A stretch of 60,922 nucleotides of DNA from a bacterium. GTDB taxonomy: Bacteria > Patescibacteriota > Minisyncoccia > Phycocordibacterales > UBA6899. The stretch lies in NCBI GenBank assembly GCA_021851895.1, contig JAJZQJ010000001.1:1-60922 (forward strand), given 5' to 3'. A program made the translations under genes and the position numbers. Each line of letters starts with the position of its first letter. The first letter of the stretch is position 1. Below, piece by piece: positions 1 through 60,922 of the stretch. The notes under the pieces were generated by a model. The model was not told the DNA's origin and made no database searches. It worked only from the letters and a program-made list of their open reading frames with translations.

Positions 1-481
1 CGTCGAGAACCGTGGGTGAGCTCTCGCTCATGGGTCCCATTCTTATGGGAGCGAGAGTGCAAGACCTTTTGAGAACTTTTGTGAGTCCTTGAAACAAAAG
101 ATCCAAAAGGTGTACCGTTCATGTAATGAAATCGAGGAGCACGGCCGTGCGGGACCCTTCAGGGTGCGCGGCATCGCGACGTGAGATATCCCCCATGTGG
201 GGTCACTATTTATCCAGCGCGTGCAGCGCACCTTCTCGTCCGAGGAGTGCGCAGTAAGACATCTGAAAACCCGTAATCAATTTCTGTGGCTTTAATTTAC
301 ATACGCAGCGTGCCACACTCTTTAAGTAGTGTGCAGCAAAATACTTAGTGGCGAAGGGATTGCTCCTCTTGTTTTTATATTTAAAATGCACGATGCTATC
401 TCACAAAATATTTAAAAGTAATAGCGCAAGTTTAAATAAGCGCATCCCCACATGCGTAGCTGCTTTATAAATATTGTATTA
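1..481. other. Gene-free palindromic region at window start
   Basis: I see no convincing gene here; the open frames are short and have no recognisable protein character. The stretch is rich in hairpins. Positions 21-57 form a strong stem (CTCTCGCTC with GAGCGAGAG, plus an inner TCCCAT/ATGGGA). Around 334-361 there is the motif GCAAAATACTTAGTGGCGAAGGG, which recurs beside the tRNA genes at 46.99 kb and, inverted, near 8.26 kb. This suggests that another member of the tRNA-associated repeat family lies here, perhaps next to a tRNA gene just outside the window. Confidence 0.5.
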
Positions 482-8240: not shown

Positions 8241-8409
8241 TTTTTGTGCACCTTGGAGGACTCGCCCCTTCGTCACATCAGTATGTTGTTTTGCAAGCTC
8301 ACAACATACTGTGTGCGAGTAGGGCCAGGGCTCGGCCACGACCGCTTCGGTCGGAACCTCAGCGGTCGGCTTCGCGGCCTCCGCCTTTCGAGTCCTCGAA
8401 GTTGCCAAA
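8241..8409. repeat. Palindromic mosaic with tRNA-Val(CAC) tail copies
   Basis: Positions 8241-8264 repeat 8446-8469 exactly (24 bp), which includes the 3' end of tRNA-Val(CAC) in the same orientation. Positions 8387-8405 hold an imperfect inverted copy of the same tail (TTCGAGTCCTCGAAG). Between them lies a dispersed element whose hairpin is AGTATGTTGT/ACAACATACT (8280-8310), followed by a segment starting GTGTGCGAGTAGGGCCAGGG. A close relative lies inverted at 46933-47015. No gene is seen in this stretch. Confidence 0.7.
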
Positions 8410-8442: not shown

Positions 8443-8451
8443 AAATTTTTG

Positions 8452-8525
8452 TGCACCTTGGAGGACTCGAACCTCCGACCCCAGCAATGTGAATGCTGTG
8501 CTCTAACCAACTGAGCTAAAGGTGC
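8452..8525 (-). tRNA. tRNA-Val(CAC)
   Basis: A full cloverleaf folds on the minus strand: acceptor GCACCTT/AAGGTGC, D-arm GCTC/GAGC, anticodon stem CAGCA/TGCTG with loop TTCACAT (anticodon CAC), T-arm GGAGG-TTCGAGT-CCTCC, and A73. CCA is not encoded. It stands 5 bp from the left end of the 38-kb element. Before integration it would have followed tRNA-Ser(CGA) in tandem with only four bases (CAGC) between them. Confidence 0.93.
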
Positions 8526-46713: not shown

Positions 46714-46786
46714 GGGCGATTAGCTCAGTTGGTAGAGCGCTACATTGACGTTGTAGATGTCAGAGGTTCGAGTCCTCTATCGCCCA
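46714..46786 (+). tRNA. tRNA-Val(GAC)
   Basis: Acceptor GGGCGAT/ATCGCCC, D-arm GCTC/GAGC, anticodon stem CTACA/TGTAG with loop TTGACGT (anticodon GAC), T-arm AGAGG-TTCGAGT-CCTCT, A73; no encoded CCA. Confidence 0.95.
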
Positions 46787-46792
46787 CAAAAC

Positions 46793-46822
46793 AACCACCT
46801 AAATGCAAAGCATTTAGGTGGT
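46793..46822 (+). terminator. Terminator-like hairpin after tRNA-Val(GAC)
   Basis: AACCACCTAAATGC-AA-GCATTTAGGTGGTT, a perfect 14-bp stem, 6 bp after the tRNA 3' end. Confidence 0.7.
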
Positions 46823-46833
46823 TTCGGTTTTGA

Positions 46834-47015
46834 GGCGATAGAGGACTTGAAGGACGGAGCCGGTGCTACTGCTGCACCGGCTGTTGATTTTATCCGGCTC
46901 TTCGAGCCGTGATAAATCCAGCCGTGCGCGCAGTCGGCGAGTCCTGGCCCTACTTGCACTTAGTATTTTTGCGAGCAGTGCGAAGCAAAATACTTAGTGA
47001 CAAAGGGGCGAGTCC
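46834..47015. repeat. Inverted tRNA-Val tail and dispersed palindromic element
   Basis: GGCGATAGAGGACT (46834-46847) is the reverse complement of the tRNA-Val(GAC) 3' end. Two further small hairpins follow (GCCGGTGC/GCACCGGC and GGCTC/GAGCC). Positions 46933-47015 are, on the minus strand, a close relative of 8258-8339: GGACTCGCCCCTTTGTCAC, then hairpin ACTAAGTATTTTGC/GCAAAAATACTAAGT, then GCAAGTAGGGCCAGGACTCG. No gene is present. Confidence 0.7.
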
Positions 47016-47017
47016 CG

Positions 47018-47314
47018 ATGTACAAATTTTCCATCACTAGAATTTTCATTATTCTGCGCTACACTATAGAGATTGGACCATACTTAGCGTCCTTAATCAT
47101 GATCATCATGTCATTTGAAGTCATTCTCTTTTACTTGATTCTCATCGATAGCATTAGCGCGAACATCTTTGCAATGTTTGGCGAGCGATGGTACGTCCAT
47201 CACTTCAGGCATATCTCACGCCTCTTCCCACTCGCTAAGGGCTGGACGCTGTACTACCTCGTCCTCGTCCTATGGATAGGATCGCTGCTCTATCGCAGTG
47301 CCGGACTCTTCTAA
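47018..47314 (+). CDS. Small membrane protein (98 aa)
   Basis: Two or three membrane segments (ILRYTIEIGPYLASLIMIIM, VILFYLILIDSI and a C-terminal YYLVLVLWIGSLLY) flank a basic, aromatic loop. ATG at 47018 has AAGGGG about 12 bases upstream, which lies within the palindromic repeat. A terminator follows at once. No family recognised. Confidence 0.5.
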   Translation: MYKFSITRIFIILRYTIEIGPYLASLIMIIMSFEVILFYLILIDSISANIFAMFGERWYVHHFRHISRLFPLAKGWTLYYLVLVLWIGSLLYRSAGLF

Positions 47315-47315
47315 C

Positions 47316-47345
47316 AAATGCCATGGTGCTATACCATGGCATTTT
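47316..47345. terminator. Terminator between converging genes
   Basis: AAATGCCATGGT-GCTAT-ACCATGGCATTTT. It serves the small membrane gene and perhaps also the kinase gene from the other side. Confidence 0.7.
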
Positions 47346-47367
47346 CATATCATCTTAAGTTGATGGA

Positions 47368-49296
47368 TCATCGCACATAGGGTACTTCGAACCAGAAACG
47401 ACTTCCACCTCCTTCGACACTCTCAAAACCAATGGTTCCACCATGCTGCTCAATGATGTATTTTGCAACAGACAGTCCAATTCCGAATGAATCGGGCTGC
47501 ATCACCGATGCATTCGTTGCCCTGAAGAACCTTGAGAATATTCTTGACTGCTCGACTGCAGGAATACCGATACCGCTATCGACGATCTCGAAACGCAATG
47601 ACCTACCTGCCTTCTGGAGACTTATGCCAACCTTGTGATCATTCTTCGAATAGACGATCGCATTGTCGATGAGCACACGAAGTACGGCACGCATCTTCTC
47701 GCCATCACCGAGAATGCTTGGTAGATTCTCCGCCGTATCGAATGTGATCGTGATATTTTTTAGTTTCGCCTTTGCCTCACTCTCTCCAATGGCTCCTGCG
47801 CAGAGACTTCGTAGCGAAATTTCTTCCTTTATGAGTAAAAGTCTATTCTCCTCGATATCCATGGACATCAAGAGCCCATTGATGCGATCCGTGATCTTCT
47901 TGCTTGCGATATGCGTTGCCGAGAGAAACTCTTGCTGTGTTTCCGTGAGCTTTCCAAATGAACCACTAAGGATCTCTTCAAGATTCCAGTTAATAGCAGT
48001 AAGCGGGGTAGAGAGCATGTGCGACATGATCTGGAGAAAACGTGCACGCAACTCACTGAGCTCTTTTATGCGCGACTCGCTATTTCTCTTTTCGGAGATA
48101 TCTGAGAACACCACAACCGCACCAATGAGATTATGCTCCTCATCACGGAACGGAATACTTTTATATTCCACCCAAAACCATGAACCATCTTTTCTCCAAA
48201 AAACCTCGGTATCAACAACATGCTCGACCCCCTCGATGATCGATTTGCGAATGGGGCAATCTTCTATAGGGTACACAGAGCCATCAGGACGTTTGTGCAC
48301 CATATCATGCGTACGCTTCCCAAGAAGCTCCTCGCTCGTGAATCCAAGGAGTCTTGTTGCGGCATCATTTACAAATATCGCAATACCCTTCGTGTCGACC
48401 AATATGATACTATCGGTACTCTGCTTGACTGCAAGAGAGAAGATCTTCAGATCTGCAGTTTGCTTATTCACAAGTTCCTCGAGGTGTGTCTTATGCTTTT
48501 CGAGTTCTTCCTCCTTTGTGAGCAACGTACGGAAGATGATGTTATATGGCTGAATAATACTCACCTGAATCGTCGCTTTATAAATGAAATAATATGCGAC
48601 GAATTTAAAAAGGTGACCAACGACATTTGCGAGGCCAAATACACTGACATATTCAGAGAATGACAACTCCGAAATGACGAGCATGACGATTGCGACCGCC
48701 ATCGAACGAAAAGTATCGGTATCAATGCCCGCCTGCCGTTTGTAAAGAAAATATACGGACGTGCCGAGCATCACTGAAATAATATACTCACTAATGACCT
48801 TGAAAGGCGTCAAGCCGACGCTGTCTATGTAGGCAACAGGAAAATCCCTCCAATAAAAGATAGAGAGCAACGCCAATACAGTGATCACGGAATAGATCAG
48901 TCCAACATAACCCGTACGAACCTTCCTGCCGAACATAAATGGTGCGACAAGAAACGTGATGCCTTGCATATATCGTGCGGCGATCCAAAGTTGTATAGAC
49001 AACGCTGCATCATAGCTTGGAAACACACCCATCCCCTGATATGAAAGTGCATGGAAAAAATCAAGAATGGAAATAAATAAGAACGTAACACCAAGAAATA
49101 TGAGATAGCCGTTGTCGATTTTTTCTCGCTCATTCCAAACGATCAACGATATACTCATGCCGATGACGATCGCAAAAAACTCGATCGAGCTATGGAACAA
49201 GAGATAGTCGTAGATACTCACCACATACAAGACTACGACAGCGATGAGCACTGCGAGTATCTCCGTATATGAATATTTTATGGTGTTTCCGAACAT
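47368..49296 (-). CDS. Membrane sensor histidine kinase, MASE3-PAS type (642 aa)
   Basis: About seven or eight membrane helices (residues 10-255) resemble the MASE3 sensor domain. Then come a coiled coil (KEEELEKHKTHLEELVNKQ), a PAS domain with PAC (about 290-405), and a HisKA domain with the phospho-acceptor in MSHMLSTPLTAINWNLEE (about residue 425). The ATPase domain has N-box LIDNAIVYSK, G1 DSGIGIP and G2 GIGLSVAKYI. No response regulator gene lies next to it, so it is an orphan kinase. Confidence 0.88.
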   Translation of the reverse strand: MFGNTIKYSYTEILAVLIAVVVLYVVSIYDYLLFHSSIEFFAIVIGMSISLIVWNEREKIDNGYLIFLGVTFLFISILDFFHALSYQGMGVFPSYDAALSIQLWIAARYMQGITFLVAPFMFGRKVRTGYVGLIYSVITVLALLSIFYWRDFPVAYIDSVGLTPFKVISEYIISVMLGTSVYFLYKRQAGIDTDTFRSMAVAIVMLVISELSFSEYVSVFGLANVVGHLFKFVAYYFIYKATIQVSIIQPYNIIFRTLLTKEEELEKHKTHLEELVNKQTADLKIFSLAVKQSTDSIILVDTKGIAIFVNDAATRLLGFTSEELLGKRTHDMVHKRPDGSVYPIEDCPIRKSIIEGVEHVVDTEVFWRKDGSWFWVEYKSIPFRDEEHNLIGAVVVFSDISEKRNSESRIKELSELRARFLQIMSHMLSTPLTAINWNLEEILSGSFGKLTETQQEFLSATHIASKKITDRINGLLMSMDIEENRLLLIKEEISLRSLCAGAIGESEAKAKLKNITITFDTAENLPSILGDGEKMRAVLRVLIDNAIVYSKNDHKVGISLQKAGRSLRFEIVDSGIGIPAVEQSRIFSRFFRATNASVMQPDSFGIGLSVAKYIIEQHGGTIGFESVEGGGSRFWFEVPYVR

Positions 49297-49404
49297 GAAC
49301 GTAAAGTTATTGCTAATCGACTGAGTACTTAGTAATGTATAATTACTAACATACTCTATAGTATAAGTGGAGAAACGGTGGTTTGCAAGTAAGCGCTGTG
49401 GAAT

Positions 49405-49434
49405 AAAAAATCCAGGAGGCTACTCCTGGATTTT
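49405..49434 (-). terminator. Terminator of the DsbA-like gene
   Basis: Read leftward, AAAATCCAGGAG-TAGC-CTCCTGGA runs into TTTTTT. Confidence 0.8.
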
Positions 49435-49437
49435 GAA

Positions 49438-50193
49438 CTACTTCGTTTTCAACACCTCTTCTACAGCTGCTTTTATCTGATCGTACGGAACTGCGCCGAC
49501 GATAAGTTTCTTCCCTATCATGAATGACGGGGTGCCGGTCACGCCATAGGCCTGGCCCTCGTCCATATCAGCCTGCAATGCTTGCTGATAAGTCGATGAC
49601 TTCGCAACAATGAGCGCATCGATCTTCTTTTCGTCGAGGCCGAGCGAATTCATGAGGGCCATGATATCCTGACGATTTCCCCATCCGGTATTCTCGCCGT
49701 CCTGCTTCTCATACATCGCTGCATGCCATTTATAGAACTGTTGTGGCGCAGCTTCCCATACACCACGCTCTGCGAGTGCCGCAGTCTGCGAATCAGAGCC
49801 GAGCACAGGGAATCCCTTGAATACGATCTTCACCTTACCCGCATTCACATAATCGTTGATGAGCGAAGGAATGATCGTGCTCTCTACCTGCTTACAGAAC
49901 GGACACTGATAGTCGTACCAGTATGCGACGGTAACGGGTGCATTCACATTACCGATGAATGGATTACCCGCTGTCTTTATTTCATCGATATTCGCTGGCT
50001 TTGCTTGTCCCGCACCTGCCGCTGCAGGAGCAGCTTGTGCTGCTGCAACCTTTGACTGACCATTATCTTTGAGCAATACCGCAGCACCTATCAATAAGCC
50101 TGCGACCACGATCGCAATGGGTATTGTATTCGCCTGCAAGACACCGAGAAGCTTACATCGCTTCTTTGGTGTCGTTTGTGTTTCTTGTTCCAT
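49438..50193 (-). CDS. Membrane-anchored DsbA-like disulfide oxidoreductase (251 aa)
   Basis: One N-terminal membrane anchor (about residues 24-41), an Ala/Pro-rich linker (50-68), and a thioredoxin-fold domain with active site CPFC at 97-100 and the cis-Pro loop GVTGTPSFMIG. The long helical insertion between them is typical of DsbA/DsbG-like DSBA family proteins. It would form or shuffle disulfides in secreted proteins outside the membrane. Confidence 0.88.
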   Translation of the reverse strand: MEQETQTTPKKRCKLLGVLQANTIPIAIVVAGLLIGAAVLLKDNGQSKVAAAQAAPAAAGAGQAKPANIDEIKTAGNPFIGNVNAPVTVAYWYDYQCPFCKQVESTIIPSLINDYVNAGKVKIVFKGFPVLGSDSQTAALAERGVWEAAPQQFYKWHAAMYEKQDGENTGWGNRQDIMALMNSLGLDEKKIDALIVAKSSTYQQALQADMDEGQAYGVTGTPSFMIGKKLIVGAVPYDQIKAAVEEVLKTK

Positions 50194-50297
50194 GCTTCTT
50201 TTATTATGAGTATATATTCATTATAACAGATATATCGTTATCATGCGCGCCAATATACCCATTTGCCACAGGCATACTTCTCCGCTAATATAGCCAC

Positions 50298-51473
50298 ATG
50301 CGCATTCTTTCCATAGAATCGAGCTGCGATGAGTCCGCCCTTGCAATCACTGAGCAGGATACATCTTTAGGCCATTTCGCCCCAATTACCGTCCTCGCAA
50401 ACAATGTGCTCTCACAAATCGACATACACCGAGAATACGGTGGGGTTTTCCCGGCGGTCGCAAAGCGCGAACACGCTAAGGCATTCACTCCTCTACTCAT
50501 CAAAACGCTCGCGGATGCTGGTATGCATCTCTCTGCACAAACTCCCATTGACCCAGCGGTCGATGGAGAGCTCGCTATCCTCCTCGAAAGAGAACCCGAA
50601 CTGCTCGAACACATGCGTGCGATCATGCCAACGATTGAACGTCCGCAAATCGATGCAATCGCGCTCACCGTTGGCCCAGGCCTTGAGCCAGCACTTTGGG
50701 TAGGAATCAACTTCGCGAAAGCACTCGCGCTCCTTTGGAATATCCCGATACTGCCGGTCAATCACATGGAAGGACACTTGCTTGCAGCAATTGTCTCGGG
50801 ACATAGCGAAGCACACGGAAAGCACGTGCTCACACTTGACCCAGTCACCTATCCCGCACTCGGCCTACTTGTCTCGGGGGGACACACCGAACTCATACTT
50901 GTTGAAACGCCCGGCAGCTATAAACTTCTCGGGGAGACACGAGATGATGCAGTCGGTGAAGCATTCGACAAAGTTGCGAGACTCCTCGGACTCCCCTATC
51001 CTGGTGGACCAGAGATCTCAAAACTTGCAGAACTCGGCAAGCCAGGCGAATACCATTTTCCGCGACCGATGCTCTCGTCGAAGGACTACGATTTCTCTTT
51101 CGCAGGCCTAAAGACCGCAGTACGTTACCTCATCGATGATCTCCCAGAACTTACCGATGAGATAAAAAAGGATGTCGCGCGTGATTTCGAAGATTCTTGC
51201 GTCGAAGTGCTTACGAAAAAGACCCTCAACGCAGTGAAGGAATTCGGTGCTCAAACAGTGGTGATCGGCGGCGGAGTATCCGCAAACCGCAAGCTACGCA
51301 ACACCCTTGCTTCAGGGCTCGAATCGATCGGAGTACCCCTACTCCTCCCTGATCGCGGGCTCTCGACTGACAATGCACTCATGATCGCACTCGCCGCACA
51401 TCTGCACCCGAGAGAGCACATGCCTCTCGAGCGCATACGTGCCCGTGGACACTGGAGAATTCATGAATCATAA
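50298..51473 (+). CDS. tsaD: tRNA t6A37 threonylcarbamoyltransferase TsaD (391 aa)
   Basis: This enzyme transfers threonylcarbamoyl to A37 of ANN-decoding tRNAs. Landmarks are ILSIESSCDESALAI at the start, the iron-binding NHMEGH (about residues 154-159), LVSGGHTELILV, DDAVGEAFDKVARLLGLPYPGGP, and VIGGGVSANRKLR. It has an insertion around residues 55-110 compared with E. coli TsaD. The gene ends 38 bp before the tRNA-Pro repeat region. Confidence 0.95.
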   Translation: MRILSIESSCDESALAITEQDTSLGHFAPITVLANNVLSQIDIHREYGGVFPAVAKREHAKAFTPLLIKTLADAGMHLSAQTPIDPAVDGELAILLEREPELLEHMRAIMPTIERPQIDAIALTVGPGLEPALWVGINFAKALALLWNIPILPVNHMEGHLLAAIVSGHSEAHGKHVLTLDPVTYPALGLLVSGGHTELILVETPGSYKLLGETRDDAVGEAFDKVARLLGLPYPGGPEISKLAELGKPGEYHFPRPMLSSKDYDFSFAGLKTAVRYLIDDLPELTDEIKKDVARDFEDSCVEVLTKKTLNAVKEFGAQTVVIGGGVSANRKLRNTLASGLESIGVPLLLPDRGLSTDNALMIALAAHLHPREHMPLERIRARGHWRIHES

Positions 51474-51510
51474 TAGTATATCCTCGTCCTGTTTTCTCTA
51501 GGATATACTA

Positions 51511-51698
51511 TTTTCTTTCGGGCCATCGGATAGTGGTAGCGTCGAGGGGAAACGAGCACGCGGAGCGTGCGACCCCGAGACGAGACGGAGCGATGCCGAG
51601 TCCGCGAGGCCGCGAGTCGTGGCGACGGCCACTTAGTATATTGCGAATGCTTGGAGCAATATACTTTGTGAGCCGTGCCGTAGCATGGGGTGTGACAA
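51511..51698. repeat. tRNA-Pro 5'-half copy and palindromic mosaic
   Basis: 51511-51539 duplicates 51699-51727 exactly (29 bp, which is the 5' quarter of tRNA-Pro and its upstream bases). The mosaic that follows has the hairpin CTTAGTATATTGC/GCAATATACTTTG (51632-51668), related to those at 8280-8310 and 46958-46998. The duplication stops before the anticodon arm, so it is not a functional tRNA. Confidence 0.75.
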
Positions 51699-51706
51699 TT
51701 TTCTTT

Positions 51707-51780
51707 CGGGCCATCGGATAGTGGTAGTCCGTACGCATGGGGTGTGTATAGCGAGGGTTCGATTCCCTCTGGCCCGACCA
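51707..51780 (+). tRNA. tRNA-Pro(GGG)
   Basis: Starts with C1 and pairs CGGGCCA/TGGCCCG, as usual for bacterial tRNA-Pro; D-arm GGAT/GTCC, anticodon stem TACGC/GTGTA with loop ATGGGGT (anticodon GGG), T-arm GAGGG-TTCGATT-CCCTC, A73 and encoded CCA. Confidence 0.92.
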
Positions 51781-51782
51781 CA

Positions 51783-51810
51783 CAAAAACCGCATGATCAT
51801 GCGGTTTTTG
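51783..51810. terminator. Palindromic terminator after tRNA-Pro
   Basis: CAAAAACCGCATGATCATGC plus GGTTTTTG: a perfect 28-bp palindrome, starting 3 bp after the tRNA CCA. Confidence 0.75.
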
Positions 51811-51832
51811 TCGGGCCAGAGGGAATCGAACC
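51811..51832 (-). repeat. Inverted copy of the tRNA-Pro 3' end
   Basis: All 22 bases are the exact reverse complement of 51756-51777 (T-arm and acceptor 3' strand). The copy abuts the stop codon of the leftward surface-protein gene. Confidence 0.85.
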
Positions 51833-51833
51833 C

Positions 51834-59300: not shown

Positions 59301-59800
59301 GTCACCCCTTTCGCGGGGGCCTTCGAGCAGAAACACGCTGAAGTCCTGTGGGACGATAAGGTGATGGACGCACCTTCCCCTTATTCGCAGGGGGCTCCTG
59401 GGGATGCCTTGCGGGTACGCGAGGAAGACCAGAGGGTGCATAGGGCGAGGTACGTGACATGAGAGCTCCTTTATTTTCTCTCTATAGGATACCAGAAAGA
59501 AATGAAAATACGAGAGTGTGAAGGCGGGACTTTGTGCCGAGGACAGGGTTGGACAAGATTTTGCTCGCGCACTCCAGAGGAGCCTCGCACGGCAAAGTCT
59601 TTCGGAAACACACGGAACCATGCGGAGGACAGGAGTCAAACATCGTTTGGCTCGCGCACTCCAGAGGAGCCTCGCACGGCCAAACGATTCAGAAACCCAC
59701 GGTTTCCGACGGAGCTCTTGCGGCAAGAGCTCCTGCCTTCCTCCACGGGAAACTCCCGTTTCCCGACCCCTTCCCGGTTCGACCCTGGTCCTCGAAGCAC
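59301..59800. repeat. Gene-free mosaic with repeated hairpins and tRNA-Phe tail copies
   Basis: A 31-bp sequence occurs at 59563-59593 and 59650-59680. Each copy is flanked by its own inverted arms (second copy TCGTTTGG with CCAAACGA; first copy AGATTTTG with CAAAGTCT). Positions 59533-59555 are a degraded copy of the tRNA-Phe tail. Positions 59776-59800 are an inverted copy of the tail (18 bases exact, 59777-59794). Hairpins GAGCTCTTGC/GCAAGAGCTC and GGGAAACTCCCGTTTCCC-type repeats add to the mosaic. I see no real gene. Confidence 0.65.
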
Positions 59801-59836: not shown

Positions 59837-59840
59837 ACTG

Positions 59841-59913
59841 TGCCGAGGACCAGGGTCGAACTGGTGACCTACCGCTCTTCAGGCGGGCGCTCTACCAACT
59901 GAGCTACCTCGGC
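59841..59913 (-). tRNA. tRNA-Phe(GAA)
   Basis: Acceptor GCCGAGG/CCTCGGC, T8-A9, D-arm GCTC/GAGC, anticodon loop CTGAAGA (anticodon GAA), T-arm ACCAG-TTCGACC-CTGGT, A73; no encoded CCA. The outermost anticodon-stem pair is a C-T mismatch. Confidence 0.92.
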
Positions 59914-60680: not shown

Positions 60681-60922
60681 TAAGAACGCCGCTTCAGAAG
60701 CGGACCAGGCGTTCTTTCTGGTAAAAGTCTCGCGCCGCGAGTCACATCAACTCAAGCAATTGCTTTGCACTTGCTTTTCCCAGTAAGAACGCCGCTTCAG
60801 AAGCGGACCAGGCGTTCTTTCTGGTAAAAGTCTCGCGCCGCGAGTCACATCAACTCAAGCAATTGCTTTGCACTTGCTTTTCCCAGTAAGAACGCCGCTT
60901 CAGAAGCGGACCAGGCGTTCTT
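60681..60922. repeat. 103-bp tandem repeat after tRNA-Arg(CCT), cut by window end
   Basis: Units start at 60681, 60784 and 60887 (the third is partial) and look identical. Each begins with a terminator-like hairpin (AAGAACGCC ... GGCGTTCTT with inner CCGCTTC/GAAGCGG), followed by a palindrome (CTCGCG/CGCGAG) and AAGCAATTGCTT. Just before, 60670-60681 repeats the tRNA D-arm (GTTCAATGGATA). The array may continue beyond the window. Confidence 0.9.

What the first reader, a model, noticed from the sequence alone, without database searches (positions are those of the whole stretch)
46714..51832. Host tRNA genes are followed by a hairpin and an inverted copy of their own 3' end
Four host tRNA genes show the same order: tRNA, perfect hairpin, inverted tRNA tail. 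They are Val-GAC (46714; copy 46834-46847), Pro (51707; exact 22-base copy 51811-51832), Phe (59841; copy 59777-59794) and Val-CAC (8452; imperfect copy 8387-8405). tRNA-Arg(CCT) has a different repeat, and the phage tRNA-Arg(TCT) has none. In the transcript the copy could pair with the tRNA T-arm and acceptor strand. It could be a by-product of fold-back replication at terminators, a control of tRNA maturation, or a decoy for integrases that target tRNA 3' ends.
Basis: seen in the sequence. Interest (0 to 1): 0.78.

Follow-up and report, generated by a model that had tools for sequence, protein, structure and literature searches.

The report
Folded elements parked behind tRNA genes
Behind most tRNA genes of this tiny-genome bacterium and many of its relatives sits a small folded non-coding element, framed by an inverted and often a direct copy of that tRNA's own tail, and it looks like an undescribed family of gene-end-loving elements.

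Summary
In the genome (G000, Patescibacteria, 46 tRNAs), 33 of 46 tRNAs have behind them an inverted copy of their own last 20 bases that beats every other tRNA's tail (permuted tails: mean 0.8). The copy continues the terminator stem into one long palindrome (H1). Right behind it lies a 60-330 nt non-coding element (E): a multi-hairpin junction, often closed by a 7-8 bp stem made of the inverted copy and a second, direct copy of the tRNA tail. E covaries (20 of 22 and 20 of 28 pairs) and folds better on the tRNA strand in 57 of 59 cases; H1 shows no such bias. E is absent from Rfam, occurs in 182 of 247 genomes of the order and patchily elsewhere, mostly behind tRNAs, occasionally rpsI. Between two congeners E differs at 11 of 15 shared tRNAs. 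Best reading: a mobile, non-autonomous structured element specialised for gene 3' ends, its host-derived arms kept alike by template switching. The mobilising enzyme is unknown: no RVT_1 reverse transcriptase, usually one tyrosine recombinase; Y1 transposases in 8 of 11. A host RNA function is not excluded.

The parts
46714..46787 (+). tRNA-Val(GAC)
   Evidence: ARAGORN
46767..46851 (+). H1 palindrome: arms 46767-46806 and 46810-46851 (tRNA tail + terminator stem / terminator stem + inverted tail)
46833..46851 (+). inverted copy of the tRNA-Val(GAC) tail, ends at T54 of the T-loop
46852..47008 (+). element E (module A2 + module B2) on the tRNA strand
47009..47015 (+). short direct copy of tRNA-Val(GAC) tail, positions 56-62 (CGAGTCC), other strand of closing stem P1
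51707..51780 (+). tRNA-Pro(GGG)
51811..51833 (+). exact 23-base inverted copy of the tRNA-Pro tail; no element behind it
51513..51700 (+). partial copy of the tRNA-Pro 5' end (51513-51539) followed by an element with the modules GAGACGGAGCGATGCCGAGTC (51582-51602) and B1 (51619-51679)
59840..59913 (-). tRNA-Phe(GAA)
59776..59797 (-). inverted copy of the tRNA-Phe tail
59549..59775 (-). class B element (starts GGGAAGGGGTCGGG); its downstream limit is approximate
59535..59548 (-). direct copy of part of the tRNA-Phe tail (CCCTGTCCTCGGCA)
8451..8525 (-). tRNA-Val(CAC)
8387..8401 (-). imperfect inverted copy of the tRNA-Val(CAC) tail
8265..8386 (-). element E (module A1 + module B2)
8247..8264 (-). 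exact direct copy of the tRNA-Val(CAC) tail (CGAGTCCTCCAAGGTGCA), followed by a second terminator
1..358 (+). element pieces at the contig start (UGUAA-type D module 61-130, B2-like hairpin end 329-358); the tRNA they belonged to would lie beyond the contig end (inference)

Best explanation
The inverted tail copies are one flank of a family of small, non-coding, multi-hairpin elements (E, about 60-330 nt) that sit at the 3' ends of tRNA genes, at the T-loop boundary T54/C56, and occasionally at the 3' end of rpsI. The full order is: gene ... D - terminator hairpin - inverted D - E - direct D', where D is the last ~20 bases of the gene. The tRNA stays intact because its tail is present in front of the element; D' is the spare copy. 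Inverted D and D' form the closing stem P1 of E, so the ends of E always match the local gene. SHOWN: the architecture, its prevalence, E's covariation, its tRNA-strand folding, its turnover between congeners, its spread. INFERRED: that E is mobile (moved in trans; a Y1/REP-type transposase is the only candidate enzyme family not counted out by the tests), that it enters at a palindromic gene end, and that the palindrome H1 and the matching arms are extended and kept alike by replication template switching in strongly transcribed, hairpin-rich DNA.
For: 33 of 46 own-tail inverted copies, permutation mean 0.82. Contexts show E and second tails, tandem units. Class D: 20 of 22 predicted pairs have double changes; class A: 20 of 28. 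E folds better on the tRNA strand in 57 of 59, random window segments 145 of 295, H1 60 of 105; G-U 24 vs A-C 12 and 37 vs 9 in the two alignments (structures were derived in sense orientation, so this count is biased). Spread: 182 of 247 genomes, 123 of 152 genera of the order. Of the 30 A-type loci fetched 28 lie within 500 nt behind a same-strand tRNA, 22 within 150; D-type 18 and 13 of 30; outside the order 14 and 13 of 20. Turnover: 27 orthologous tRNA pairs in G000/G001, 15 with element in both, same 5' module in 6, both modules the same in 4 (motif-based classes). rpsI: G000 and G001 carry inverted copy + class B element, G000 also a direct copy of the gene end. Direct tail copies end at the tRNA end: of 32 second copies among 104 tRNAs, 23 stop 16-23 nt after position 57.
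Against: No movement was seen directly and no mobilising gene was found: RVT_1 in 0 of 11 element-rich genomes; Phage_integrase one copy in 9 of 11, three in one, none in one; Y1_Tnp in 8 of 11 but also in 5 of 12 element-free ones (one below cut-off), and no A-type element near four Y1 genes looked at. A small streamlined genome spending so much on such DNA speaks for some use. H1 (terminator + inverted tail) is kept at orthologous loci while E changes (listing), so H1 and E may have separate origins. The terminator is rarely part of the direct duplication (4 of 103), which weakens a simple target-site-duplication model. T-loop and rpsI boundary sequences are not alike, so the target rule is unknown.
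Confidence: 0.5

Rival explanations
1. Host-maintained RNA: E and the inverted tail are a cis-acting 3' extension of the tRNA (and rpsI) transcript. The inverted tail can pair either with the tRNA's own 3' half or with the spare copy D', so E would act as a folding switch or protector for read-through transcripts, or as a tRNA-like 3' end.
For: Strand-specific folding of E (57 of 59); covariation; in G004, G021 and G038 a hairpin (mostly 22-27 nt) sits in the inverted copy exactly between its acceptor and T-stem parts, mimicking tRNA topology; mismatches of the copy cluster at tRNA positions 65 (31 of 107) and 72 (38 of 86); the closing-stem part of D' is better kept than the rest in G000/G001.
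Against: A terminator-like hairpin with a U run lies between tRNA and E in most G000 loci (listing), so E may not be transcribed; patchy presence (G009: 0 of 27 tRNAs; 65 of 247 genomes of the order without A-type match); modules swap between congeners; D' is degraded in many G000 loci.
Confidence: 0.23
2. By-product only: replication fold-back at terminators copies the tRNA tail backwards; E is junk left in the palindrome.
For: H1 is continuous through the terminator stem (own flank complementarity 15.0 vs 9.3 for other loci), strand-symmetric, and exists without E at tRNA-Pro in the window and at rpsI of G034 and G389. Template switching can create and maintain hairpins (PMC8794818, abstract) and quasi-palindrome events were seen only under high transcription in yeast (PMC3820800, abstract).
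Against: Does not explain E's conserved sequence and structure over many genera, its strand bias, or the constant junction at T54.
Confidence: 0.15
3. Relics of site-specific integration: E units are tiny integrative elements (or att sites) of tyrosine recombinases that target tRNA T-loops and rpsI and restore the gene end.
For: Second tail copies mostly end at the tRNA 3' end (23 of 32), like attL/attR identity blocks; streptococcal ICEs with tyrosine integrases use 3' ends of tRNA genes and of rpsI (PMC4701971, passages).
Against: No coding capacity; element-rich genomes mostly have one tyrosine recombinase (that it is the Xer housekeeping enzyme is assumed), and only L312-L314, none from an element-rich genome, have a tRNA near the recombinase gene; the inverted copy and per-gene arms are not part of such elements as I know them.
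Confidence: 0.08
4. Integrase decoy that protects tRNA genes from incoming elements.
For: The copies contain integrase-type targets (recalled).
Against: Element-free G009 has more integrase genes (5) but no inverted tails (0 of 27), element-rich genomes have about one: compatible with protection but equally with chance; a decoy does not need E's structure.
Confidence: 0.04

Closest known systems
REP / REPIN elements mobilised by Y1 (RAYT) transposases
   Same: Small, non-coding, hairpin-forming, in gene flanks, single-strand recognition by the transposase (recalled); Y1_Tnp genes in 8 of 11 element-rich genomes
   Different: REPs are 20-40 bp (PMC3733652, abstract start in listing); E is a 60-330 nt multi-hairpin junction, tied to tRNA genes, with arms matching the local gene; no A-type element next to the Y1 genes tested
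Double-hairpin elements and GC clusters of mitochondrial genomes
   Same: GC-rich, modular hairpin elements that spread without coding anything (recalled; papers such as PMC5910586 and PMC4478555 seen as listings only)
   Different: No host-gene-derived closing stem or restored gene tail known to me
tRNA-targeting integrative elements (ICEs, IMEs, islands)
   Same: Target 3' ends of tRNA genes and rpsI (PMC4701971), gene tail present twice
   Different: No integrase gene, some 150-200 bp in all, inverted copy of the tail
Quasi-palindromes shaped by template switching
   Same: Explains the strand-symmetric H1 and its upkeep (PMC8794818, PMC3820800, abstracts)
   Different: Does not supply E

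Membership tests
REP/RAYT elements | 20-40 bp single palindrome | tested here: not met
   E is 60-330 nt with two or more hairpins on a closing stem
REP/RAYT elements | Y1_Tnp (RAYT) gene in the genome | tested here: inconclusive
   8 of 11 element-rich, 5 of 12 element-free genomes
REP/RAYT elements | transposase gene flanked by the element | tested here: not met
   no R2 match in L256-L259; classes B, C and D not tested there
Integrative elements (tyrosine recombinase) | gene tail repeated directly at both ends | tested here: met
   32 of 104 tRNAs with an exact second copy of positions 57-66, 23 of the 32 ending at about the tRNA end
Integrative elements (tyrosine recombinase) | own integrase gene, or extra integrase in the genome | tested here: not met
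   E is non-coding; one PF00589 match in 9 of 11 element-rich genomes
Retroelements | reverse transcriptase of the RVT_1 family in the genome | tested here: not met
   0 of 11 element-rich genomes
Group I introns and any other Rfam family | covariance-model match | tested here: not met
   no match at gathering score in 20 sources besides tRNA, no credible weak one in 6 sources; true group I introns were found in L065 and L077 outside E
Intrinsic terminators | hairpin plus U run between tRNA and inverted tail | tested here: met
   seen by eye in most of the 48 G000/G001 loci listed; termination itself not tested
Template-switch quasi-palindromes | continuous inverted repeat without strand preference | tested here: met
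   for H1 only

The most novel reading that the evidence does not exclude
A tRNA-ome-wide RNA system: nearly every tRNA gene carries downstream its own structured RNA whose 5' strand is a ~20-nt antisense to that tRNA's 3' half and whose 3' end is a spare copy of the tRNA tail, acting as a tRNA-specific folding, repair or sensing partner; its spread over many Patescibacteria would make it an overlooked layer of tRNA biology.
Probability: 0.15. Interest if true: 0.93.

Novelty: categorically new. Interest (0 to 1): 0.82.

Why it matters
Patescibacteria have among the smallest bacterial genomes, yet this one keeps a structured non-coding element behind most tRNA genes, each with arms written in the sequence of that tRNA. 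Either a previously unseen kind of mobile element has found a universally conserved, harmless place to live and a way to match any gene end, or the lineage has a tRNA-coupled RNA layer that nobody has described. Both are directly testable, and covariance models made here find the element in unannotated genomes. It may also explain why assemblies of such genomes break at tRNA genes (several G000 contigs end in or near such units; inference).

Tried and rejected
Duplication of the 5' half of the tRNA: at non-Watson-Crick positions the inverted copy follows the reverse complement of the 3' strand in 76 cells, the 5' strand in 4, other in 12 (copies were located with the reverse complement of the tail, which favours this). 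Known RNA family: none. Virus-borne: pattern GAANGRCGGAGGCCGCGAAGCC has 0 hits in viral contigs. Reverse transcriptase, tyrosine integrase, Y1 transposase as a clear partner. Long target-site duplication including the terminator: only 4 of 103 loci. L331 looked like a 124-nt target duplication; it is longer than one unit and is better read as a tandem repeat of the whole unit. A hint that the second tail carries CCA where the gene does not: 1 of 32 by script, plus L339 and L341 by eye; not pursued. The rpsI test against other genomes' gene ends is uninformative because S9 ends are conserved. D-type best hits include non-tRNA places: 12 of 30 without a same-strand tRNA within 500 nt; one of them (L192) looks coding, i.e. 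a false match; L212 lies behind 16S rRNA on the other strand. Literature: 11 searches were sent, one search failed on a term; none listed a paper on such elements; open-licence PMC only. Papers seen: PMC4701971 passages; PMC8794818 and PMC3820800 abstract and outline; all others in search listings only.
Full report
WHAT WAS CHECKED. The window is contig C13 bases 1-60922 of a 1.10 Mb, 16-contig genome (G000) with 46 Rfam tRNAs. The relatives named in the pattern scan are Paceibacterota/Parcubacteria (Lloyd-, Campbell-, Taylor-, Vogelbacteria).

STATISTICS. For each of the 46 tRNAs I aligned the reverse complement of its last 20 bases (T54-N73) with the 160 nt behind it and compared with every other tRNA's tail, which controls for the shared TTCRA consensus. 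33 of 46 fit their own tail strictly best with score >=20, 2 more reach 20 but tie; permuted tails give mean 0.82 and at most 3; a stretch 1 kb further gives 0 of 39 (first run). Four tRNAs are close to contig ends and were not dropped. In the window long hairpins are found at tRNA ends and nearly nowhere else: 3 of 3 at score >=44, 4 of 5 at >=36.

ANATOMY. The inverted copy ends at T54, and H1 runs from the T-loop through the terminator stem and back: the first 11 nt behind the tRNA are complementary to the bases before the inverted acceptor (own 15.0, other loci 9.3). Behind it comes an element E. I distinguish by eye module A (N-GRC-GGAG ... CGAG-YC), module B (e.g. GGGTCGCGAGCACTTAG ... 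CTTAGTGACTTGTGACC), class B (GGGGTCGGG ... CCGTGGGT), class D (hairpin plus a second hairpin with a UGUAA/AGUAG pentaloop) and class C, which follows copies of tRNA 5' ends (window 60681-60922; upstream of tRNA-Ser C13:119715). E is usually followed by a direct copy of the tRNA tail beginning at C56, and whole units can stand in tandem (e.g. C15:61764, C5:63611). Folding shows a closing stem P1 (inverted copy with direct copy) around two hairpins. In G000 and G001 the direct copy matches its own tRNA in a fraction 0.67-0.94 at positions 57-63 (other tRNAs' tails 0.40-0.93, because of the shared consensus) and 0.27-0.54 at 64-73 (others 0.23-0.37) (48 rows).

E IS A STRUCTURE ON THE tRNA STRAND. 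RNAalifold on 24 class D sequences gives 22 pairs, 20 with double changes; on 26 class A sequences 28 pairs, 20 with double changes. Folding energies favour the tRNA strand in 57 of 59 elements, against 145 of 295 random window segments; H1 shows 60 of 105, and 110-nt flanks of tRNAs in element-free G009 19 of 27. So E and H1 differ in kind: E looks like something folded as one strand (RNA or single-stranded DNA), H1 like a duplex palindrome.

SPREAD. The A-type model finds 182 of 247 genomes of the order (123 of 152 genera), and in a phylum sample 30 of 286, of which 22 lie outside the order (3 same class, 19 same phylum). The D-type model finds 6 of 286 in the phylum sample, all in the order. 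Behind tRNAs: A-type 28 of 30 fetched loci within 500 nt, 22 within 150, typically 53-62 nt; D-type 18 and 13 of 30; outside the order 14 and 13 of 20 chosen hits. An independent exact 22-base pattern gave 16 stretches in the genome collection: 13 have a same-strand tRNA within about 265 nt upstream, one (L095) shows a tRNA tail at a contig edge, two (Kocuria, Acidobacteriota) are chance. Presence is patchy: by a 12-nt test the inverted T-part is behind 33 of 43 (G000), 25 of 31 (G001), 13 of 31 (G004), 16 of 31 (G038), 10 of 33 (G021), 10 of 34 (G022) and 0 of 27 (G009) tRNAs examined (of the relatives I examined 31 of 41, 31 of 45, 31 of 42, 33 of 45, 34 of 43 and 27 of 37 tRNAs). In G004, G021 and G038 a hairpin (mostly 22-27 nt) separates the acceptor and T-stem parts of the inverted copy.

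TURNOVER. Of 27 orthologous tRNA pairs of G000 and G001 (most of them identical), 15 carry a recognised element in both; the 5' module class agrees in 6 and both modules in 4. At Val-GAC the 3' hairpin module is of the same type and the 5' module differs. Where the tRNA changed (Val-TAC, position 57), inverted and direct copies changed with it. The terminator and its flank look the same at orthologous loci (listing).

NOT ONLY tRNAs. In G000 a class B element with a D module stands behind rpsI, with an inverted copy of the last codons of rpsI behind the terminator and a diverged direct copy of the gene end behind the element. Of 29 rpsI loci read, G001 has the same kind of inverted copy and element start; G038 and G454 have about 10 inverted bases and an element start; G034, G389 and G022 have 14-19 inverted bases without element (all judged by eye). 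rpsI and tRNA 3' ends are also both used by streptococcal ICEs with tyrosine integrases (PMC4701971, passages).

WHAT MOVES IT, IF ANYTHING. RVT_1 is absent from 11 element-rich genomes and present in 6 of 12 element-free ones. Phage_integrase: one copy in 9 of 11 element-rich genomes, three in one, none in one; only L312-L314, none from an element-rich genome, have a tRNA nearby. Y1_Tnp: 8 of 11 against 5 of 12, without A-type elements beside four of the genes. The enzyme is unknown; Y1 is the only tested family not counted out.

HOW IT MOST LIKELY WORKS. I think E is a non-autonomous, single-strand-folded element that settles at the base of a terminator-centred palindrome at gene ends; the gene stays whole because its tail is kept in front. 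The matching arms are then kept alike by template switching, which can create and maintain hairpins (PMC8794818, abstract) and in yeast quasi-palindromes was seen under high transcription (PMC3820800, abstract). This is inference resting on architecture, turnover and patchiness. The main rival is that E is a host RNA acting on the tRNA; strand-specific constraint and the tRNA-like split of the inverted copy speak for it, the terminator in between and the patchiness against.

NOVELTY. No Rfam family, no virus hit, nothing in the paper searches made (open-licence library only). Known hairpin elements (REP, double-hairpin elements) lack arms written in the sequence of each host gene (recalled). 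I therefore place it as categorically new, with the reservation that a known mobiliser would turn it into a new variant of a known kind.

Noticed in passing
window 60681-60922 and on (C13): 103-bp unit (class C: AGAACGCCGCTTC...) repeated head to tail behind tRNA-Arg(CCT), after a copy of the tRNA's 5' D-arm region; the assembly has a gap of N in it.
   Followed up: partly
window 51513-51700; G000 C13:119715 upstream; C4:104177 upstream: Partial copies of tRNA 5' ends, at least two of them carrying elements, lie upstream of the intact tRNA, the mirror case of the 3' units.
   Followed up: partly
L077 1136-1391 and L065 1670-1939: Group I introns (Rfam RF00028) next to a tRNA 3' part that ARAGORN does not call; an A-type element follows in both.
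   Followed up: partly
G000 C12:9256-9874 (L197, L284): The rpsI 3' end carries the same inverted copy, element and direct copy as tRNAs.
   Followed up: yes
L220, L221 (G303 contig C6): Two nearly identical D-containing elements with their own outer stem stand apart from tRNA ends; dispersed copies.
   Followed up: no
L212: A D-type match about 310 nt behind a 16S rRNA gene, on the other strand.
   Followed up: no
L339, L341: The second tail copy has CCA after the discriminator while the tRNA gene in front has only CA; possible trace of the original gene end or of an RNA intermediate.
   Followed up: no
G000 C4:41048-41380 (L258): Y1-type (REP-associated-like) transposase gene, the only one found in G000.
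   Followed up: partly
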